Assembly (NCBI GenBank): GCA_021732845.1
Contig: JAKFUF010000211.1
Span: 1 to 33,999, forward strand
Direction of reading: 5' to 3'
DNA: 33,999 nt
Origin: Planctomycetaceae bacterium
GTDB taxonomy: Bacteria; Planctomycetota; Planctomycetia; Planctomycetales; Planctomycetaceae
The notes under the pieces are model-generated. The model was not told the DNA's origin, did no database searches, and worked only from the letters and a program-made list of their open reading frames with translations. The position numbers were made by a program, and so were the translations under genes. Below, in pieces: positions 16,400-33,999 of the stretch (the stretch's first letter is position 1; each line of letters begins with the position of its first letter).

Positions 16400-16515
16400 G
16401 GTTCTCATTCTCCGTGCCAGGGCCGGCGACCAGTTTGCAGATGGCGAAGTCCGATTATAACCGGGCGGGCCGGTTTTGAACTTTCGCCAGTCGGATCGAG
16501 TCGGGGAGTGACTGA

Positions 16516-16877
16516 AAAGTAGCCGAGTCACTCCGTGACTCGATCGCGACCCCGTTTTTACAGCAACCGATCCCGCAGGTTTCCGGGCGTCCCCGCTCAC
16601 TTCGTGAGAGGGTTCGAGTCACGGAGCGACTGAAAAGTAGCCGAGTCACTCCGTGACTCGATCGCGACCCCGTTTCTACAGCAACCGATCTCGCAGGTTT
16701 CCGGGCGTCCCCGCTCACTTCGTGAGAGGGTTCGAGTCACGGAGTGACTGAAAAGTAGCCGAGTCACTCCGTGACTCGATCGCGACCCCGTTTCTACAGC
16801 AACCGATCCCGCAAGTTTCCGGGCGTCCCCGCTCACTTCGTGAGAGGGTTCGAGTCACGGAGTGACTCGGCTACTTT
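16516..16877. repeat. Tandem array of three 118-bp REP-containing units
   Basis: Three units begin at 16516, 16634 and 16752, an exact 118-bp period with only a few substitutions. Each starts AAAGTAGCCGAG followed by the 17-nt palindrome GAGTCACTCCGTGACTC, contains an internal small hairpin (CTCACTTCGTGAG) and ends with the inverted palindrome GAGTCACGGAGTGACT. Only the last unit ends in the full inverted terminus (CTCGGCTACTTT, to 16877). A degenerate right end precedes the first unit near 16487-16514. The same terminus flanks the unrelated interior of the elements at 33322 and 33577. Confidence 0.85.
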
Positions 16878-17119
16878 GTCGCACGGGTTTAGGATCGCGG
16901 CAATAATAACATGGTGAAGTTGATTGGGATGGACGCCGATTGAGGGCAGATTCATCAGCCGGCACGCGTTAGCGTCCGGTTCGTGGCGTTGGCGTCTTCC
17001 GATGATCCCCCAACCGGGGGCTACTAAGGCCCTCCGGCTCATTGGCTGTACAGTTTGTCAAAAGTCGACAGTTATTCTTGCAGCGGTCCTTACCCGTGAT
17101 GAGCCACGAGCCGGGTCCA
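16878..17119. other. Spacer with a planctomycete-type palindromic motif
   Basis: No gene is seen. CCGGCACGCGTTAGCGTCCGG at 16959-16979 is an imperfect palindrome that I associate with dispersed non-coding repeats in planctomycete genomes. CCCCCAACCGGGGG near 17008 is another small palindrome. The octamer TGAGCCAC lies at 17100-17107. Confidence 0.4.
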
Positions 17120-17830
17120 TCACTCTGTGCGCAGCGCCGCAATGAGATGATTCAATTCATCGCCCACATCGGCCGGGTCGCTGACGGTGTCGGCGATGCG
17201 GCCGCGGACCACCTCGCGGAACCGTTTGCGGAGCCGGTGGATGGCGACCGTGCGCGCCCCGTCGGAAAGTCCCAACGTGGCGAGCTGCGCGGCGTTCACT
17301 TCGGCATTGGGCATGAGCCACTGTTTGAGGATCTCAAACCGTTCGGTCTCTGCCGTCGCGCGGGCCTCCTGGCGCAGGTCCTCGATCGAGCTTTCCACCA
17401 CCGACAAGGCCCATTGCCGGTCGAAGCTGGCGTCGGCCCGGGCCTCTTCTCCATCGGCCGCGGCGCAGGCCATGTCGCTCAGTGACTGCGGAATGTGTCC
17501 CCCTCCGCGCCGCAAAGCCTGTTCATGGTCGCGGCGGTCGGCCAGAAAGTGCTTCACCGCACCCAGCAGGTAGGAGCGGAAGCGGCCGCGCTGTGGGTCG
17601 GGGTTACCCAGGCTGTCGCGTTCCAAGAGGCGGGCGAAGAATTCATGGGTCAGGTCGCGGGCTTCGTCCGGGTTCCCATGGCGGGCGATGAACAGTTCGA
17701 CCGGCGCATAGCAGCGTTCGCACAGGGACCGCAGCGCCTGGCGGGCCTCCTGCGTGCCGCCGTGGGCGGCCAGAACCTGGGTCCAGCGCGTCGTCTGGAA
17801 ACCGCCGGCATTGGGGAGGGCGGCGCTCAT
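17120..17830 (-). CDS. ECF-type RNA polymerase sigma factor
   Basis: The 236-residue protein has a sigma-70 region 2 at about 25-110. Its signatures are RSLCERCYAPVELFIARHG, the DEARDLTHEFFARLLER helix and GRFRSYLLGAVKHFLADRR (promoter -10 recognition). Region 4 at about 175-215 contains LATLGLSDGARTVAIHRLRK, the helix-turn-helix for the -35 element. It lacks an obvious C-terminal extension or an adjacent anti-sigma gene. Its ATG overlaps the TGA of the upstream kinase gene (ATGA), so the two are translationally coupled. ECF factors linked to Ser/Thr kinases are a recognised planctomycete arrangement; control by phosphorylation instead of a classical anti-sigma factor is a reasonable inference. 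The octamer TGAGCCAC lies in the gene at 17314. Confidence 0.92.
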   Translation of the reverse strand: MSAALPNAGGFQTTRWTQVLAAHGGTQEARQALRSLCERCYAPVELFIARHGNPDEARDLTHEFFARLLERDSLGNPDPQRGRFRSYLLGAVKHFLADRRDHEQALRRGGGHIPQSLSDMACAAADGEEARADASFDRQWALSVVESSIEDLRQEARATAETERFEILKQWLMPNAEVNAAQLATLGLSDGARTVAIHRLRKRFREVVRGRIADTVSDPADVGDELNHLIAALRTE

Positions 17831-19926
17831 GGAACGTGGGCTTTCTTCACTTCTTGTGGCACCAATTCTGGCGGCGGCGCCATTTGTGGGGGCGGAGGTT
17901 CACGCGTGCTGTTCCAAATCGTCATCAGGGTGAGGCTGGTGAACAATATCGCGCCCAGAAAAGTGAGGGTGAAGATCAACGCCGCGGGCACCCACCGTCG
18001 ACTGCCAGGCGAGGAACGGTGTTGCGGAACCACCGCTGGCGATCGGCCGTCCCGCGCGGCGCGCAGATACTCACACCAGTCGAACGCATGCCGGTTGGTG
18101 TCGCCGAGCGAGGCCCAATGATTCAATGAAGGGGTGAGAAACATCTGCCGGATGCCGCTTCCCGAGTCATAGGTGACGATCACGCGGTTCAGCCCCATCA
18201 GGTTGACCATGGCCGGGTAACGGTCCACCGAAACGTCGCGGATCGATGACAGAGGGATCTCGGCCAGATGTCCGGGAGGGAGCGGGCGGTGGCGATGAAT
18301 CCTGAGCCACCGGTCGTCGAGGAAAAATTCGCCCTGGCAGTGATGGATGAAGAGTTGACCCCAAAAGGTGTCCAACTGTTCGGCCGGAACGACGAGGCCC
18401 CGGGCGCGGAGCGCGGTGGGTGCGGGTTGGCGGACGGGTTTGTCGTCGAGCGGAGGCTGTGGCGTTTTGAGCTGGCCGCGGTGGATCAACCCCAGCCCCA
18501 GCGGAATCAACTGCACCAGGGATCCGCCCACGAGAATTAGAAACGCATGCTGCCCCAGACTGGAGAGAAAGAATGCTGATTTGAAGAACATTTGCCACAA
18601 GGGGATGCTGAACATGACCCACGCGAAGACGAAAAAGCCGACAACTGGCGACAGCTTCTGGGGCTGTCTGTTGACTGTGGGTTGCCGGCGCGCGTCGAGG
18701 TAGACGGGAATGCCCGGGAAGGCCAGACCGCCAAACACCGCCGCGAGATAAACCAGGGTCAGGTAGTCCCCGTTGCTGGCGGTCACCACTCCTCCGAAGA
18801 AGGGAAAGCCGACAAGAAACAACAGACCGAGTGTGACCTGAATGTAGCCGTTGACCCGGACGTCCGGCTGAGGCCGCCAGTCCGGGGCTTCGACCTCTGC
18901 GGTTGGAATCGGCACGGGCTTTGACACAGACAGCGTTGGGGCTTCGCCGGACGCCAACGCTTCCACCCGCGTCTTGAATTCGCCCGCCGTCTGGTAGCGC
19001 AGTTCGGGCTTCGATTCCAGCGCCCGCAGCACGATTTCATCCAGGCGAACATCGATCTGCACTTTCCTTGAGGGAGCTTCAAACTTCGCGCCAGGCCGCT
19101 CGCCCGTGAGCATCTCGTACAGCACCACACCGAGGGCATAGATGTCCGCGCGGTGGTCCACCTGCGACGGATTGTCGCGCTGTTCCGGAGCCATGTACTG
19201 CGGCGTCCCCACGACCGACTGCTGCGTCAGTTCGCCCTGCCCGTGGCTCAGACCCGACGTGGGAGCAACGGCTTCCGGTTGCTCGACGCGGAGCATGCGG
19301 GCGATGCCAAAGTCGGCAATTTTGAGCCGCCCCTCCTTGTCGAGCAGCAGGTTTTCCGGCTTGATGTCGCGATGGACCACCCCATGTTGATGCGCATACA
19401 GCAGGGCCTCGCAGATGGGCGGAACGATGGCCAGCGCCTGCGCTGGTGTCAGCCGCCCGGTGGACATCGCCTGCCGCAGGTTGACGCCGTCGACAAATTC
19501 CATCGTGATGAAGTACAGCGACCCCGTTTTTCCAAAGTCATGAATTGTGACGATGTTGGGATGGTTGAACTCCGCCAGGGCCCGTGCTTCGCGGATGAAC
19601 CGCTCGGCAAAGTCGGGATTGGAGGCCAGTTCCGGAGCCAGAACCTTGAGCGCCACCAGCCGCCCGAGTGACCGCTGACGCGCCTTATACACCGCCCCCA
19701 TTCCTCCCTGACCGATCGGTTCCAGCAGCTCGTACTGCGGAAAGAGTGGCTCAAGTTCTTCCAATGTAGGAGCGAGCCACGACCGGGCGGCAGGGAGACT
19801 TTCTTCACCTGTGCCAAAGGCCACCTGCCGCAGCAGACACGCCGGACACAACCCGTCCGTCACCCGCGAATCGACCGCTGCCCCACAGCTTCGGCACTTT
19901 GCACCGGCACCCCATGAATCAGCCAT
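17827..19926 (-). CDS. Zinc-ribbon Ser/Thr protein kinase coupled to ECF sigma factor
   Basis: The 699-residue protein begins with a zinc ribbon (C11, C14, C27, C30). The kinase domain spans about 65-325: GQGGMGAVY (72-80), VALK lysine K94, HRDIKPEN with D187, DFG (205-207), GTPQYMAPEQ and HRADIYALG. A linker is followed by a membrane region of about four segments (about 360-485). Next comes a soluble domain with VIVTYDSGSGIRQMFLTP, reminiscent of a bacterial PH-like fold. One more membrane segment at about 645-670 (ALIFTLTFLGAILFTSLTLM) and a Pro-rich tail close it. Its stop overlaps the sigma factor start, so both products are probably made together and the sigma factor is a likely partner or substrate. 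The start at 19926 gives the zinc ribbon at the expected place; the ribosome binding site is weak. Confidence 0.93.
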   Translation of the reverse strand: MADSWGAGAKCRSCGAAVDSRVTDGLCPACLLRQVAFGTGEESLPAARSWLAPTLEELEPLFPQYELLEPIGQGGMGAVYKARQRSLGRLVALKVLAPELASNPDFAERFIREARALAEFNHPNIVTIHDFGKTGSLYFITMEFVDGVNLRQAMSTGRLTPAQALAIVPPICEALLYAHQHGVVHRDIKPENLLLDKEGRLKIADFGIARMLRVEQPEAVAPTSGLSHGQGELTQQSVVGTPQYMAPEQRDNPSQVDHRADIYALGVVLYEMLTGERPGAKFEAPSRKVQIDVRLDEIVLRALESKPELRYQTAGEFKTRVEALASGEAPTLSVSKPVPIPTAEVEAPDWRPQPDVRVNGYIQVTLGLLFLVGFPFFGGVVTASNGDYLTLVYLAAVFGGLAFPGIPVYLDARRQPTVNRQPQKLSPVVGFFVFAWVMFSIPLWQMFFKSAFFLSSLGQHAFLILVGGSLVQLIPLGLGLIHRGQLKTPQPPLDDKPVRQPAPTALRARGLVVPAEQLDTFWGQLFIHHCQGEFFLDDRWLRIHRHRPLPPGHLAEIPLSSIRDVSVDRYPAMVNLMGLNRVIVTYDSGSGIRQMFLTPSLNHWASLGDTNRHAFDWCEYLRAARDGRSPAVVPQHRSSPGSRRWVPAALIFTLTFLGAILFTSLTLMTIWNSTREPPPPQMAPPPELVPQEVKKAHVP

Positions 19927-31789: not shown

Positions 31790-31891
31790 ATCGGCCACGG
31801 CTGCACCTTAAAATGGGATCGAATTCGGTTTTTGTGGCCAATGACCCAATGTCCAAGTCCCAATGATCAATTGGCACGGCCCGCAGCGTTC

Positions 31892-33325
31892 ATGATTCCG
31901 GACCCAACGACCGCTGCGGTGCCAAGGCGACCGTGGCTCACCCCGTGGCGGTGGACGCTGCTGATCGGGGTCGCGTTGCCTGTGGTGATCGTCAGCGGCC
32001 TGGGACTTGTCCTGTGGCTCGGAGAGTTCCACGGGGAGAATGCGAAAGTCCTGCCGGATGGGTCGGTGCTGGTGCTGGAGCGGGTGACGCGGGGCAATCG
32101 GCATCGCTTCCCCTATCGGACGCTGGTCTGGCCCTATTTGTTCAACGGACCAGAACACACCCTGTGGGGGAGTCAGCATGGAAATGCGGACGAAAGCCTG
32201 ATGCTGTGGTTCACACGGCGGGCTCCCGGCACCAGCGCGCACCTCGATCTCAACGGCATCAAGGAAACGGTTGCCGTCGACAAAGATGGCATCACGTGGC
32301 TCGACGCCTTTCCCTCGACCGACGAATGGACCACGGGGACCAAGACGTTCGGCCGCCACCAGAACGGACGTCCGCGAAAGGATCCAACCTTTCCCTACCA
32401 CGTCGTTCACAGCGAACTGCGGATGTTCGCTCCGCGCGACGACGGCACCTTCGACCTGCACGTCTACAACAAAGCCGATGAACTCGCCGCCACATTCGTG
32501 GTGCGGATGCCCTCTGGACCAGCTCCGCCGGCACTCGTTGCCGAGCGGCTGCCAGCGACAAAGTTCAACGGCGACCTGGCGTTGACCCTCACATCCTGGT
32601 CGGCACATGAGGTGGACCACCCGGACAGTCATTCGCCCGTGCAGCCGTGGCGCAACCCGTTGAGGGTCGAAGTGAACGCCACGCCGACCTGGCAGGGCCG
32701 AGCCACCGCCGATTGGGAGTGGTCGCTGGATACGGTGTCCGACTCCTGGGGCAGCCGCAGCACGCCGGGCGCCTGCGATCTTTCGCCGTTTCACCCTTGG
32801 CGGTTGACGTTGAGTGCCATGCGCCGGGAGACCGCCCCGTTTCCGCCGGGGATGACGGCAACCGCAACCGTAAAGATGCCAGCCATGGACACAATTCAGC
32901 CTGTGGGTGAAGTTCTGCGGATTGGCGGGGTGACGGTTGAACTGCAATGGGTCGGACGGGGGCGCGTGGAAGATTGGGGGCCACGTCGCTTTCCTCTGAA
33001 TGATGCATACATTGGCTTGAGCCCCGAGCCACCGTTTTCAAAATCTGCCATTCTGGAACGCCCGAAGCCGGGTGCCGCCAGAAACGTTGTGGTCGACTGC
33101 GATGCGACTTATCTCGCCCTGCGAACGACCGGCCTGAACCACGGGGAACGGCTGTTGTTGCAGAGCGAAGGCGCGACGGGAGAGACAGTCCACTGGCGAC
33201 TTCACCGGCTTTTCGGCACGGAACTGTGGGTGGGAGACGCCGCTGAGACACAAAGCGCGGTCAAGCTGACAGTTGCCTTGCTGCGCCCCGAAAAGTTTGA
33301 CTTCGTGGTTGGACATCCAAAGTAG
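31892..33325 (+). CDS. Membrane-anchored hypothetical protein, stop codon within a repeat terminus
   Basis: Read from ATG 31892 the protein has 477 residues. One membrane anchor (WTLLIGVALPVVIVSGLGLV) lies near residues 22-42 and a large extracytoplasmic part follows. This part is beta-rich with many Trp and Pro residues (VLPDGSVLVLERVTRGNRHR, RTLVWPYLFNGPEHTLWG). It contains no recognised catalytic motif. It reads like other planctomycete type II anchored proteins of unknown role. The stop TAG (33323-33325) is the fourth to sixth base of the conserved AAAGTAGCC end of a REPIN-like element. The natural C-terminus may therefore have been altered by its insertion. A TTG-initiated longer version from 31832 is possible but unlikely. 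The gene follows queE by about 100 bp on the same strand. Confidence 0.7.
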   Translation: MIPDPTTAAVPRRPWLTPWRWTLLIGVALPVVIVSGLGLVLWLGEFHGENAKVLPDGSVLVLERVTRGNRHRFPYRTLVWPYLFNGPEHTLWGSQHGNADESLMLWFTRRAPGTSAHLDLNGIKETVAVDKDGITWLDAFPSTDEWTTGTKTFGRHQNGRPRKDPTFPYHVVHSELRMFAPRDDGTFDLHVYNKADELAATFVVRMPSGPAPPALVAERLPATKFNGDLALTLTSWSAHEVDHPDSHSPVQPWRNPLRVEVNATPTWQGRATADWEWSLDTVSDSWGSRSTPGACDLSPFHPWRLTLSAMRRETAPFPPGMTATATVKMPAMDTIQPVGEVLRIGGVTVELQWVGRGRVEDWGPRRFPLNDAYIGLSPEPPFSKSAILERPKPGAARNVVVDCDATYLALRTTGLNHGERLLLQSEGATGETVHWRLHRLFGTELWVGDAAETQSAVKLTVALLRPEKFDFVVGHPK

Positions 33326-33511
33326 CCGAGTCACTCCGTGACTCGCTCGCGTTGCCTTCACAGGATGGTGCGAATGCTCAGATACTCAAATCCTCGTTGC
33401 ATCCATCGAGACTTGCGCCAAGCCACGCGGCGACAGGAAGCGATTTGACAACGGCGTGTTCGGTCCCTGTATGAGCAGTCCACGCGGCGAGTCACGGAGT
33501 GACTCGGCTAC
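33322..33511. mobile_element. REPIN-like element, copy A (190 bp)
   Basis: Perfect 24-bp terminal inverted repeats (33322-33345 and 33488-33511) start GTAGCCGAG and contain the palindrome GAGTCACTCCGTGACTC. The interior of about 140 bp has no ORF and is about 95% identical to copy B at 33577-33767. The termini are shared with the tandem units at 16516-16877, whose interior differs. Two inverted REPs around a short spacer is the REPIN arrangement. No clear target-site duplication was found. Confidence 0.82.
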
Positions 33512-33576
33512 AAGTCTGTCTTGAAAGTTGCGGTGGCTTCGAACATGATTTTGATGCGGAACTGAGTGTAGACAAA

Positions 33577-33767
33577 GTAGCCGAGTCACTCCGTGACTCG
33601 CTCGCGTTGCCTTCACAGGATGGTGCGAATGCTCAGATACTCAAATCCTCGTTGCATGCATCAAGACTTGCGCCAAGCCAGGCGGCGACGGGAAGCGATT
33701 TGACAACGGCGTGTTCGGTCCCTGTATGAGCAGTGCACGCGGGCGAGTCACGGAGTGACTCGGCAAC
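33577..33767. mobile_element. REPIN-like element, copy B (191 bp)
   Basis: Direct repeat of copy A, with termini at 33577-33600 and 33744-33767. The right terminus differs at one base (CGGCAAC for CGGCTAC). The interior differs from copy A at only a handful of positions. Sixty-five unrelated bases separate the two copies. A transposase remnant follows 11 bp later. Confidence 0.82.
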
Positions 33768-33778
33768 ATGGGCCACTG

Positions 33779-33880
33779 ATGCAATTCAACCTCTTCGATC
33801 CAGAAGGTGATTTGCGAATCGATTTCGGTGCGCTGCCGCACTGGTATCAACCTGGCGCCACCTATTTCATTAGGGTGTAA
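33779..33880 (+). pseudogene. N-terminal remnant of a REP-associated transposase (RAYT, IS200-like)
   Basis: The 33-residue frame reads MQFNLFDPEGD and then LPHWYQPGATYFI, the characteristic start of planctomycete RAYT proteins (usually LPHW...GATYF(I/V)T(F/W)R). After TYFI it ends at once with RV and a stop. The following 119 bases to the window end do not restore the frame in any way I can see. RAYTs are Y1 tyrosine transposases that move REP sequences, and this remnant sits directly beside two REPIN-like elements. The rest of the gene is either deleted or lies scrambled beyond the window. Assignment rests on the short motif and the context. Confidence 0.6.
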
Positions 33881-33999
33881 CCGGTCATCCGCTGTGGAAA
33901 ACGGCGGGTTTTTCGGTGTTGACGGTGGAAGAAAGTGCCTCCGTTGGGGAAACATAGGGGAGTTGTCGAAACGTCCCGTGTGTTCACACCCAAGGAGGC
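33881..33999. other. End of window, no gene seen
   Basis: The last 119 bases contain a run AACGGCGGGTTTTTCGG but no supported frame. The segment may hold further decayed RAYT sequence or flanking DNA. It is cut by the window edge. Confidence 0.35.

What the first reader, a model, noticed from the sequence alone, without database searches (positions are those of the whole stretch)
33322..33880. Two REPIN-like elements beside a decayed RAYT transposase
Copies A and B are about 190 bp with near-perfect 24-bp inverted ends built around GAGTCACTCCGTGACTC. Eleven bases after copy B a frame encodes LPHWYQPGATYFI, the start of a RAYT, then stops. RAYTs are known to mobilise REP/REPIN sequences. The arrangement suggests a planctomycete REP system whose local transposase is dead while its elements have duplicated recently (about 95% identity).
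Basis: partly seen in the sequence, partly recalled or inferred. Interest (0 to 1): 0.55.

Follow-up and report, generated by a model that had tools for sequence, protein, structure and literature searches.

The report
REPIN pair beside an IS-broken RAYT
Two copies of a small hairpin mobile element sit next to the remains of the transposase gene thought to move them; that gene was split by another insertion sequence, but intact copies elsewhere in the same planctomycete genome, two of them identical, suggest the system is still alive and that the gene itself gets copied.

Summary
REPIN A (33322-33511) and REPIN B (33577-33767) are identical in 184 of 191 columns, with exact ends and unrelated flanks. 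Each has two inverted, GTNG-tagged hairpins CGAGTCAC-TCC-GTGACTCG. The 17-base core occurs 295 times in this 9.25-Mb genome. Eleven bases after B begins a REP-associated tyrosine transposase (RAYT), of which 31 codons remain.

An insertion sequence entered after base 33872; the last 127 bases of the contig are its end. The other half of the gene lies on contig C261 behind the same 9-bp target duplication, and has an internal deletion that removes the catalytic HxH and Tyr. The local RAYT is doubly dead, but three intact RAYTs of its lineage remain elsewhere in the genome.

Most RAYTs of 80 relatives (65) have repeated tagged hairpins beside them, and hairpin and protein diverge together. GTAG REPs with many transposase genes are already published for a planctomycete. 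Less expected are near-identical RAYT copies: two loci here share an identical gene, and genomes of two other genera carry REP-bounded duplicates, whereas papers I read call RAYTs single-copy. Self-movement or ordinary recombination is undecided.

The parts
33322..33511 (.). REPIN copy A: two inverted tagged hairpins, 140 nt between the 25-nt arms; preceded by CAAA (33318-33321)
33577..33767 (.). REPIN copy B, 184 of 191 columns identical to A; preceded by CAAA (33573-33576); right tag reads CAAC instead of CTAC
33322..33325 (+). GTAG tag (guide tetranucleotide) of the left hairpin of A; its TAG is the stop codon of the upstream ORF 31832-33325
   Evidence: role of the tag from PMC8266576
33327..33345 (+). 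hairpin CGAGTCAC-TCC-GTGACTCG, left REP of A (8-bp stem, TCC loop)
33488..33506 (-). right REP hairpin of A (reverse orientation)
33582..33600 (+). left REP hairpin of B
33744..33762 (-). right REP hairpin of B (reverse orientation, tag GTTG)
33779..33872 (+). 5' end of a RAYT gene (31 codons and one base), cut by the IS; the rest lies on contig C261 (L069)
33864..33872 (+). target-site duplication ATTTCATTA, left copy; the right copy is on C261
33873..33999 (+). left end of an insertion sequence (127 bp, to the contig end); terminal inverted repeat GGGTGTAACCGGTCATCCGC at 33873-33892
16498..16880 (.). second REP array in the window: 118-bp units, same core, four perfect cores (16525, 16643, 16761 on +, 16852 on -), each tagged GTAG

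Best explanation
This is a REPtron: a RAYT gene bracketed by its own REPINs. REPINs are non-autonomous elements made of two inverted REP hairpins. Shown here: the REP is CAAA-GTNG-C-hairpin(CGAGTCAC TCC GTGACTCG). It occurs hundreds of times, often as inverted pairs and clusters. RAYTs of this lineage sit between such elements, and the window's copy was killed by an IS insertion and an internal deletion while three intact copies remain. Inferred: intact RAYTs bind single-stranded REPs by tag, loop and hairpin, cut at the CA dinucleotide before the tag using its T2 and G4 as a guide, and copy REPINs to new CA-containing sites. A and B would be two such insertions, and the dead local gene would be complemented in trans.
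For: 295 exact cores, 0 in the reversed control. Tag GTNG in 177 of 189 perfect 19-mers in fetched stretches (87 GTAG, 74 GTTG, 16 GTCG); 150 of these 189 have another within 400 bp, and 62 of 96 plus-strand ones have an inverted partner 60-300 bp downstream. Over 47 independent upstream contexts CAAA is conserved next to the tag and conservation drops beyond it. A and B end at these borders; their flanks match in 8/40 and 15/40 positions. Intact RAYTs at C57, C58 and C63; REPs of this family beside the RAYT at C57, C58, C63 and C261. Of 80 RAYTs of relatives, 65 have at least 2 and 48 at least 3 tagged hairpins with the same apex within 1.2 kb; shuffles with at least 2: 1 of 240; distant stretches with at least 2: 10 of 59. 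RAYT identity and REP apex distance correlate, Mantel r -0.55, 0 of 999 permutations as low. IS: 9 left and 8 right contig edges give 7 one-to-one exact 9-bp duplications, C101|C261 among them. The model of a relative has TnpA_REP 4er8 as its best PDB match.
Against: Nothing here shows transposition directly, and no empty site was found. NF047646 (REP_Tyr_transpos) scores stay under its curated cut-off (63.7 and 56.4 against 80), and the fold match to 4er8 is moderate (TM 0.44/0.57, 19% identity). In genus g56 the same 17-mer is found (G113: 170 copies), but its RAYTs are distant and none of the eight RAYT loci read from G113, G082, G102 and G048 has the 17-mer nearby, so the REP-RAYT pairing is not one to one in every genome. 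15 of 80 relatives' RAYTs, and 7 of 12 RAYT- or IS200-like loci of the own genome, C261 among them, show fewer than 2 tagged hairpins of one apex in the scan. The CA cleavage site is read off conservation only.
Confidence: 0.92

Rival explanations
1. The elements are MITEs of a DDE-type insertion sequence, or simple terminator-like hairpins, and the RAYT fragment is a chance neighbour.
For: A and B have long inverted ends and lie directly behind an ORF, as MITEs and terminators may.
Against: Their ends are GTNG-tagged hairpins with a sharp CAAA border. RAYTs of this lineage have the same element beside them at C57, C58, C63 and C261, and most relatives show such pairing with other stems.
Confidence: 0.03
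2. The end of the contig is a mis-assembly: the RAYT runs on in reality and no IS entered it.
For: The last 127 bases are a repeat shared with eight other contig edges, as assemblers leave at a k-mer overlap.
Against: The two RAYT halves meet at a 9-bp duplication without loss of a residue, and six other edge pairs of the same repeat match one to one by their own 9-bp duplications.
Confidence: 0.04
3. A and B arose by local recombination, not by RAYT-driven copying.
For: They are 65 bp apart. The capped list shows no full-length copy of their interior elsewhere in the genome (partial matches of 68-76 nt at 82-84%). Arrays elsewhere look tandem, such as the 118-bp units at 16498-16880.
Against: The shared block starts and ends at the element borders and neither flank is duplicated, which a tandem duplication would not give.
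Confidence: 0.25
4. The several RAYT loci of this genome come from segmental duplication and gene conversion, not from movement of a REP-bounded RAYT unit.
For: C58 and C63 share a longer block that includes a 440-458-aa ORF. The RAYT is identical over 719 bp while the adjoining part of the block is 92%, as gene conversion would leave it.
Against: In G056 and G082 the homology covers the RAYT and its bordering REPs only and ends there. C57, C101/C261 and the C58/C63 pair lie beside different ORFs, and C58 and C63 differ from each other on one side.
Confidence: 0.5

Closest known systems
GTAG-tagged REPs of Planctomycetes (Di Nocera et al. 2013, PMC3733652; abstract, sections 5 and 16 and passages read)
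   Same: GTAG tag, short perfect stem, small loop, dimers and clusters, RAYT beside them; several REP families and 'a plethora' of tyrosine transposase genes with flanking repeats are reported for R. baltica.
   Different: This stem does not occur in the main text (GAGTCAC and GTGACTC searched anywhere; figures and supplements not seen). Here the third tag base is A, T or C, and the RAYT has near-identical duplicates; the paper says that coding sequences of multiple REPtrons vary.
REPIN/RAYT of Pseudomonas fluorescens SBW25 (Bertels and Rainey 2011, PMC3116915; passages read)
   Same: Inverted REP pairs as the mobile unit, a cluster of REPINs beside each RAYT.
   Different: [quoted passage not shown] here one lineage has four loci, two of them identical.
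Group 3 REPtrons Sm and Mb (Corneloup et al. 2021, PMC8266576; abstract, section 20, first part of section 23 and passages read)
   Same: Perfect palindrome with a short loop whose sequence matters; Q95, D100 and R104 positions; tag as a guide; Mb cuts at CT and CA.
   Different: Sm loses cleavage with GTTG in vitro, whereas here GTTG tags are about as common as GTAG; the loop here is TCC.
E. coli TnpA_REP, PDB 4er8
   Same: Best PDB match by profile and by fold; HxH, Tyr, W-Q and R of the tag-binding region conserved.
   Different: Only 19% identity; an N-terminal stretch with LPHW (P, H, W invariant in 31 aligned relatives); no bulge in the REP stem.

Membership tests
RAYT / TnpA_REP | Y1 HUH transposase fold | tested here: met
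   Model of the L194 relative (68% to C57), pLDDT 88.9; best PDB match 4er8, E 1.6e-6, TM 0.44/0.57. PF01797 over cut-off for C57 (27.3 against 23), under it for C58 (18.8), whose protein C63 shares
RAYT / TnpA_REP | HxH motif and catalytic Tyr | tested here: met
   C57, C58 and three relatives: H136, H138, Y196 invariant; invariant in 31 aligned relatives. The window copy has lost them
RAYT / TnpA_REP | curated model NF047646 | tested here: inconclusive
   E 1.6e-17 and 3e-15, but 63.7 and 56.4 bits against a cut-off of 80; matched by 31 of 31 aligned relatives at E up to 1e-3
RAYT / TnpA_REP | gene flanked by REPs that are repeated in the genome | tested here: met
RAYT / TnpA_REP | single copy per lineage, not self-copying (a reported property, not used here as a definition) | tested here: not met
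   Copy number: four loci of one lineage, C58 and C63 CDS identical over 711 bp. Whether it copies itself is not shown
REPIN | two REPs in inverted orientation bracketing a spacer, able to form a long hairpin | tested here: met
   A and B. Genome: 62 of 96 plus-strand perfect 19-mers in fetched stretches have an inverted partner 60-300 bp downstream
GTAG REP | tetranucleotide GTAG at the hairpin foot | tested here: met
   GTAG at three of the four hairpins of A and B, GTTG at the fourth; in fetched stretches GTAG 87, GTTG 74, GTCG 16, other 12 of 189
REPIN | moved by the cognate RAYT | not testable with these tools
   needs biochemistry or an evolution experiment
IS200/IS605 element | self-mobile unit of tnpA with its ends, many near-identical copies | tested here: inconclusive
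   Four loci of one lineage in G000 and two each in G056 and G082, with REP-bounded homology in the latter two; far fewer copies than REPs

The most novel reading that the evidence does not exclude
In these planctomycetes the RAYT has not been tamed. REP-bounded modules that carry the RAYT itself, and perhaps other genes such as the ~411-aa HTH protein family, are copied to new sites like composite elements, so that REPs act as ends of gene-sized units and not only of REPINs.
Probability: 0.22. Interest if true: 0.78.

Novelty: new variant of a known kind. Interest (0 to 1): 0.45.

Why it matters
RAYTs are treated as single-copy, vertically inherited, domesticated transposases (PMC3116915, PMC8049555, passages read), which is part of the ground for seeing REPINs as long-term residents of genomes. 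A lineage where the RAYT is copied, inactivated by an IS and kept intact elsewhere makes the gain and loss of RAYTs observable within one genome. The natural series of tags GTAG, GTTG and GTCG before one and the same hairpin, with a mostly constant CAAA upstream, is also a ready test of the guide model for where REPs are cut.

Tried and rejected
Tried and led nowhere: Pfam and NCBIfam on the 33-aa fragment alone gave nothing. Empty sites via the upstream gene 31832-33325: no match at E up to 1e-30 in 58 relatives, only a paralogue in the own genome. Naming the IS: its 36-residue right-end frame has no Pfam match, and its interior was not among the matches found in this assembly. C233, the best PF01797 match of the genome, was first suspected to be the missing half; it scores better with the IS200 model than with the RAYT model, and C261 is the half. 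Covariation between third tag base and upstream tetranucleotide: not seen, CAAA is the commonest for GTAG, GTTG and GTCG alike. The KLAP164 pair (79%) was not counted as a duplication within a lineage, because another organism's RAYT falls inside it on the tree.

Considered and rejected: MITE of a DDE element; mis-assembly; plain decay (see rivals).

Rows dropped: of 80 loci, 32 with fewer than 3 same-apex hairpins were left out of the correlation; 4 of 80 RAYTs contain stops, read as X. The structure alignment used 31 of the 80. The tree used 119 rows after removing the two window/C261 fragments and short or X-rich rows. The tag tables cover only fetched stretches of the own genome, not all 295 sites. 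Only some of the genomes with several RAYT matches were compared. Contig lengths that I did not have were interpolated.

Full report
WHAT IS THERE. The window is the whole contig C101 (33,999 bases) of a 9.25-Mb genome in 262 contigs. The genome is planctomycete by its kin: RAYTs of genomes that the tool places in its family (G008, G045, G046, G067, G080) are identical to those of records named Planctomycetia, Planctomicrobium, Fuerstiella and Planctomycetaceae. The right end of the window holds two REPINs and the start of a RAYT. REPIN A is 33322-33511 and REPIN B 33577-33767, 184 of 191 columns identical. The core GAGTCACTCCGTGACTC with up to 3 mismatches has 20 matches in the window against 0.12 expected, and copy B folds far better than its shuffles. 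The shared block begins at CAAAGTAG in both copies and ends at the outer tag of the right hairpin; the flanks agree in 8 of 40 and 15 of 40 positions. The TAG of copy A's left tag is the stop codon of the upstream ORF 31832-33325.

THE GENOME-WIDE FAMILY. The 17-mer occurs 153 + 142 times exactly in the own genome and its reversed control never. In 134 sites of the stretches fetched first, the base on either side of the core is C and G in all 134, which makes an 8-bp stem with a TCC loop. In 189 perfect 19-mers of all fetched stretches the tag is GTAG 87, GTTG 74, GTCG 16, other 12. Of these 189, 150 have another within 400 bp, and of 96 on the plus strand 62 have an inverted partner 60-300 bp downstream. 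After removal of related contexts, 47 sites show a sharp border: CAAA just before the tag is conserved (0.7-1.3 bits per position), and the seven positions before it fall to 0.05-0.28 bits.

WHY THE FRAME STOPS. Window 33873-33999 matches eight other places in the genome, all at contig edges, for 127 bases or a few more. These are left ends of an insertion sequence with the terminal repeat GGGTGTAACCGGTCATCCGC. Its right end is found at eight contig edges. Nine left and eight right edges pair one to one in seven cases by an exact 9-bp duplication, C101 with C261 by ATTTCATTA; two left edges and one right edge stay unpaired. On C261 the RAYT continues without loss of a residue, but after about 60 residues an internal deletion joins it, out of frame, to the last dozen residues, so the HxH and Tyr region is gone. 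A REPIN follows it. The gene is thus broken twice.

INTACT RELATIVES IN THE SAME GENOME. A protein search found ten matches, among them intact RAYTs at C57, C58 and C63 and more distant ones at C53 (43%) and, in two pieces, C202. C57 is 83% identical to C58, and C58 and C63 are the same protein. The window fragment is 90% and 84% identical to C57 and C58 over its 31 residues. Within 1.5 kb of C57, C58, C63 and C261 lie hairpins of the same family, tagged GTAG or GGAG at C57, mostly GTTG at C58 and C63, GTAG at C261; C53 and C202 have other tagged hairpins. Of the 12 own loci scanned, 5 (C57, C58, C63, C53, C202) have at least 2 tagged hairpins of one apex; C261 (one perfect, one variant) and the six others, mostly IS200-like or decayed, have fewer. 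The three intact proteins form one clade with support 100/99 in a tree of 119 rows.

IS IT A RAYT. Of 121 related stretches the best 80 were kept; they come mostly from Planctomycetota, with Verrucomicrobiota, Poribacteria and one Desulfobacteraceae record. In the 31 that I aligned, P, H, W of LPHW, the HxH histidines, W, D, H, R and the Tyr are invariant. The profile's best PDB match is TnpA_REP 4er8 (E 6e-4), and the predicted fold of one relative also matches it best (E 1.6e-6, TM 0.44/0.57). The curated NCBI model recognises C57, C58 and all 31, but the scores seen for C57 (63.7), C58 (56.4) and L194 (67.8) lie below its cut-off of 80. The tag-binding residues W, Q, D, H, R agree with those described for TnpA_REP subclasses that carry D at position 100 (PMC6006769, section 12 read); I did not test subclass membership.

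REP AND RAYT CHANGE TOGETHER. Around 80 RAYTs, 65 have at least 2 and 48 at least 3 tagged hairpins with the same apex within 1.2 kb; of 240 shuffles 1 has 2 and none has 3; of 59 distant stretches of the same contigs 10 have at least 2 and 2 have at least 3. An earlier scan of 29 loci from unnamed family genomes gave at least 2 in 26 of 29, against 1 of their 116 shuffles; several of these loci are the same as among the 80. Among the 48 loci with at least 3, 43 keep TCC in the loop while stems differ; with the two own RAYTs added, protein identity and apex distance correlate (Mantel r -0.55, 0 of 999 permutations as low). The test does not separate joint descent from adaptation. Tag and loop thus look like the constant part and the stem like the part that drifts, which agrees with loop and tag effects measured in group 3 REPtrons (PMC8266576, passages and section 20).

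AGAINST A TIDY PICTURE. Of 120 family genomes, 8 (own included) hold the 17-mer. In genus g56, G113 has 170 copies; in five of the seven G113 stretches that I read they form tight pairs, with AAAGTAG before the hairpin on both sides in three and on one side in two. Its two RAYT matches are 34% and 32% identical to C57, and none of the eight RAYT loci read from G113, G082, G102 and G048 has the 17-mer nearby. That REP population either lost its RAYT or the gene is missing from an 89%-complete assembly. The closest RAYT in the family sample, in G008 (68%), has another stem.

MORE THAN ONE COPY OF THE GENE. C58 and C63 carry the same 711-bp RAYT frame without a difference (719-bp identical run), with different neighbours on one side; the block they share goes on for about 2.5 kb in all and includes a 440-458-aa ORF at lower identity. 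In G056 two loci share 944 bp at 89% (proteins 93%), covering the RAYT and the REP elements that border it; outside, identity falls to chance. In G082 two loci share 785 bp at 83% (proteins 84%), again up to REPs. Of 18 same-genome pairs in other genomes, 3 reach 75% identity (1 of 7, 2 of 11; not every genome with several matches was compared). One of the three, KLAP164, is not a lineage-specific pair on the tree. [quoted passage not shown] PMC3733652 does report several REPtrons per species, with varying coding sequences (section 16 read), and many tyrosine transposase genes in R. baltica (passage). In my searches I saw no report of near-identical RAYT duplicates; I read only the papers named here, in part, and the library is open-access only.

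HOW IT PROBABLY WORKS. Known for relatives: TnpA_REP binds a single-stranded REP hairpin and cuts near it; in the Mb system CT is chosen through A3-G4 of the tag and CA through T2-G4 (PMC8266576, section 20 read). Here T2 and G4 of the tag hardly vary (T2 in 45 of 47 separate contexts; G1 and G4 were required for that set), the third base is free among A, T and C, and CA stands at the same place before the tag in 146 of 189 sites (in the 47 separate contexts C in 33 and A in 39). That is what a CA-cutting enzyme guided by T2 and G4 would leave. This step is inference. So is the statement that intact RAYTs now move A and B in trans.

VERDICT. The locus is an ordinary REPIN-RAYT locus in kind, already known from planctomycetes, with a clear cause of death. 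The unusual side is the copying of the RAYT gene.

Noticed in passing
own genome, e.g. L176 (C77) contig position 25368-26600; L115 9479-10801; L116 9049-10425: A family of ORFs of mostly 300-460 aa (HTH_8 at 8e-5 and 7e-5 for two members) is hugely expanded in this genome: 20 matches of at least 93% identity, some partial (a lower bound, 24 of 86 candidates scored), and one weak match in the other 119 family genomes. On contigs C1-C42, 10 of 14 members lie within 3 kb of a REP core, where 6.1% is expected (binomial 6e-10). 16 of 33 members in fetched stretches have at least 2 REP cores within 2.5 kb upstream.
   Followed up: partly
L119 (C53) and L120 (C202); L070, L071: Further RAYT-like sequences with their own tagged hairpins: GTGGGTTTCAACCCAC at C53, TCTCTTGCTCCGCAAGAGA and CCTCTCGCTCCGCGAGAGG at C202, whose RAYT matches in two pieces. 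Several REP systems coexist in this genome.
   Followed up: partly
L176 (C77) contig position 26590-26736 and the same place in C9, C94, C140, C175, C220: A further repeat, GTAGGATGGCCTTCCGAGGCCGT with an inverted partner, ends the homology downstream of several of the HTH ORFs; it looks like another GTAG REPIN family.
   Followed up: no
L116 and L276 (C63 42028-47587 and 5535-1): The two ends of contig C63 are a 5.5-kb inverted duplication at 96%; the RAYT lies beside one copy, and the protein search found none beside the other.
   Followed up: partly
C101 right end, C255, C137, C232, C114, C190, C28, C183, C57, C261, C242, C223, C163, C118, C40, C36, C3: An unnamed insertion sequence with 20-bp terminal repeats and 9-bp target duplications stands at 17 contig edges.
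   Followed up: partly
G113, G082 (L296-L305): Genus g56 has the same REP core, in many of the places read as miniature pairs 22-28 bp apart start to start, without a recognisable cognate RAYT.
   Followed up: partly
window 17830-19926: A protein-kinase-domain gene lies about 950 bp from the second REP array of the window.
   Followed up: no
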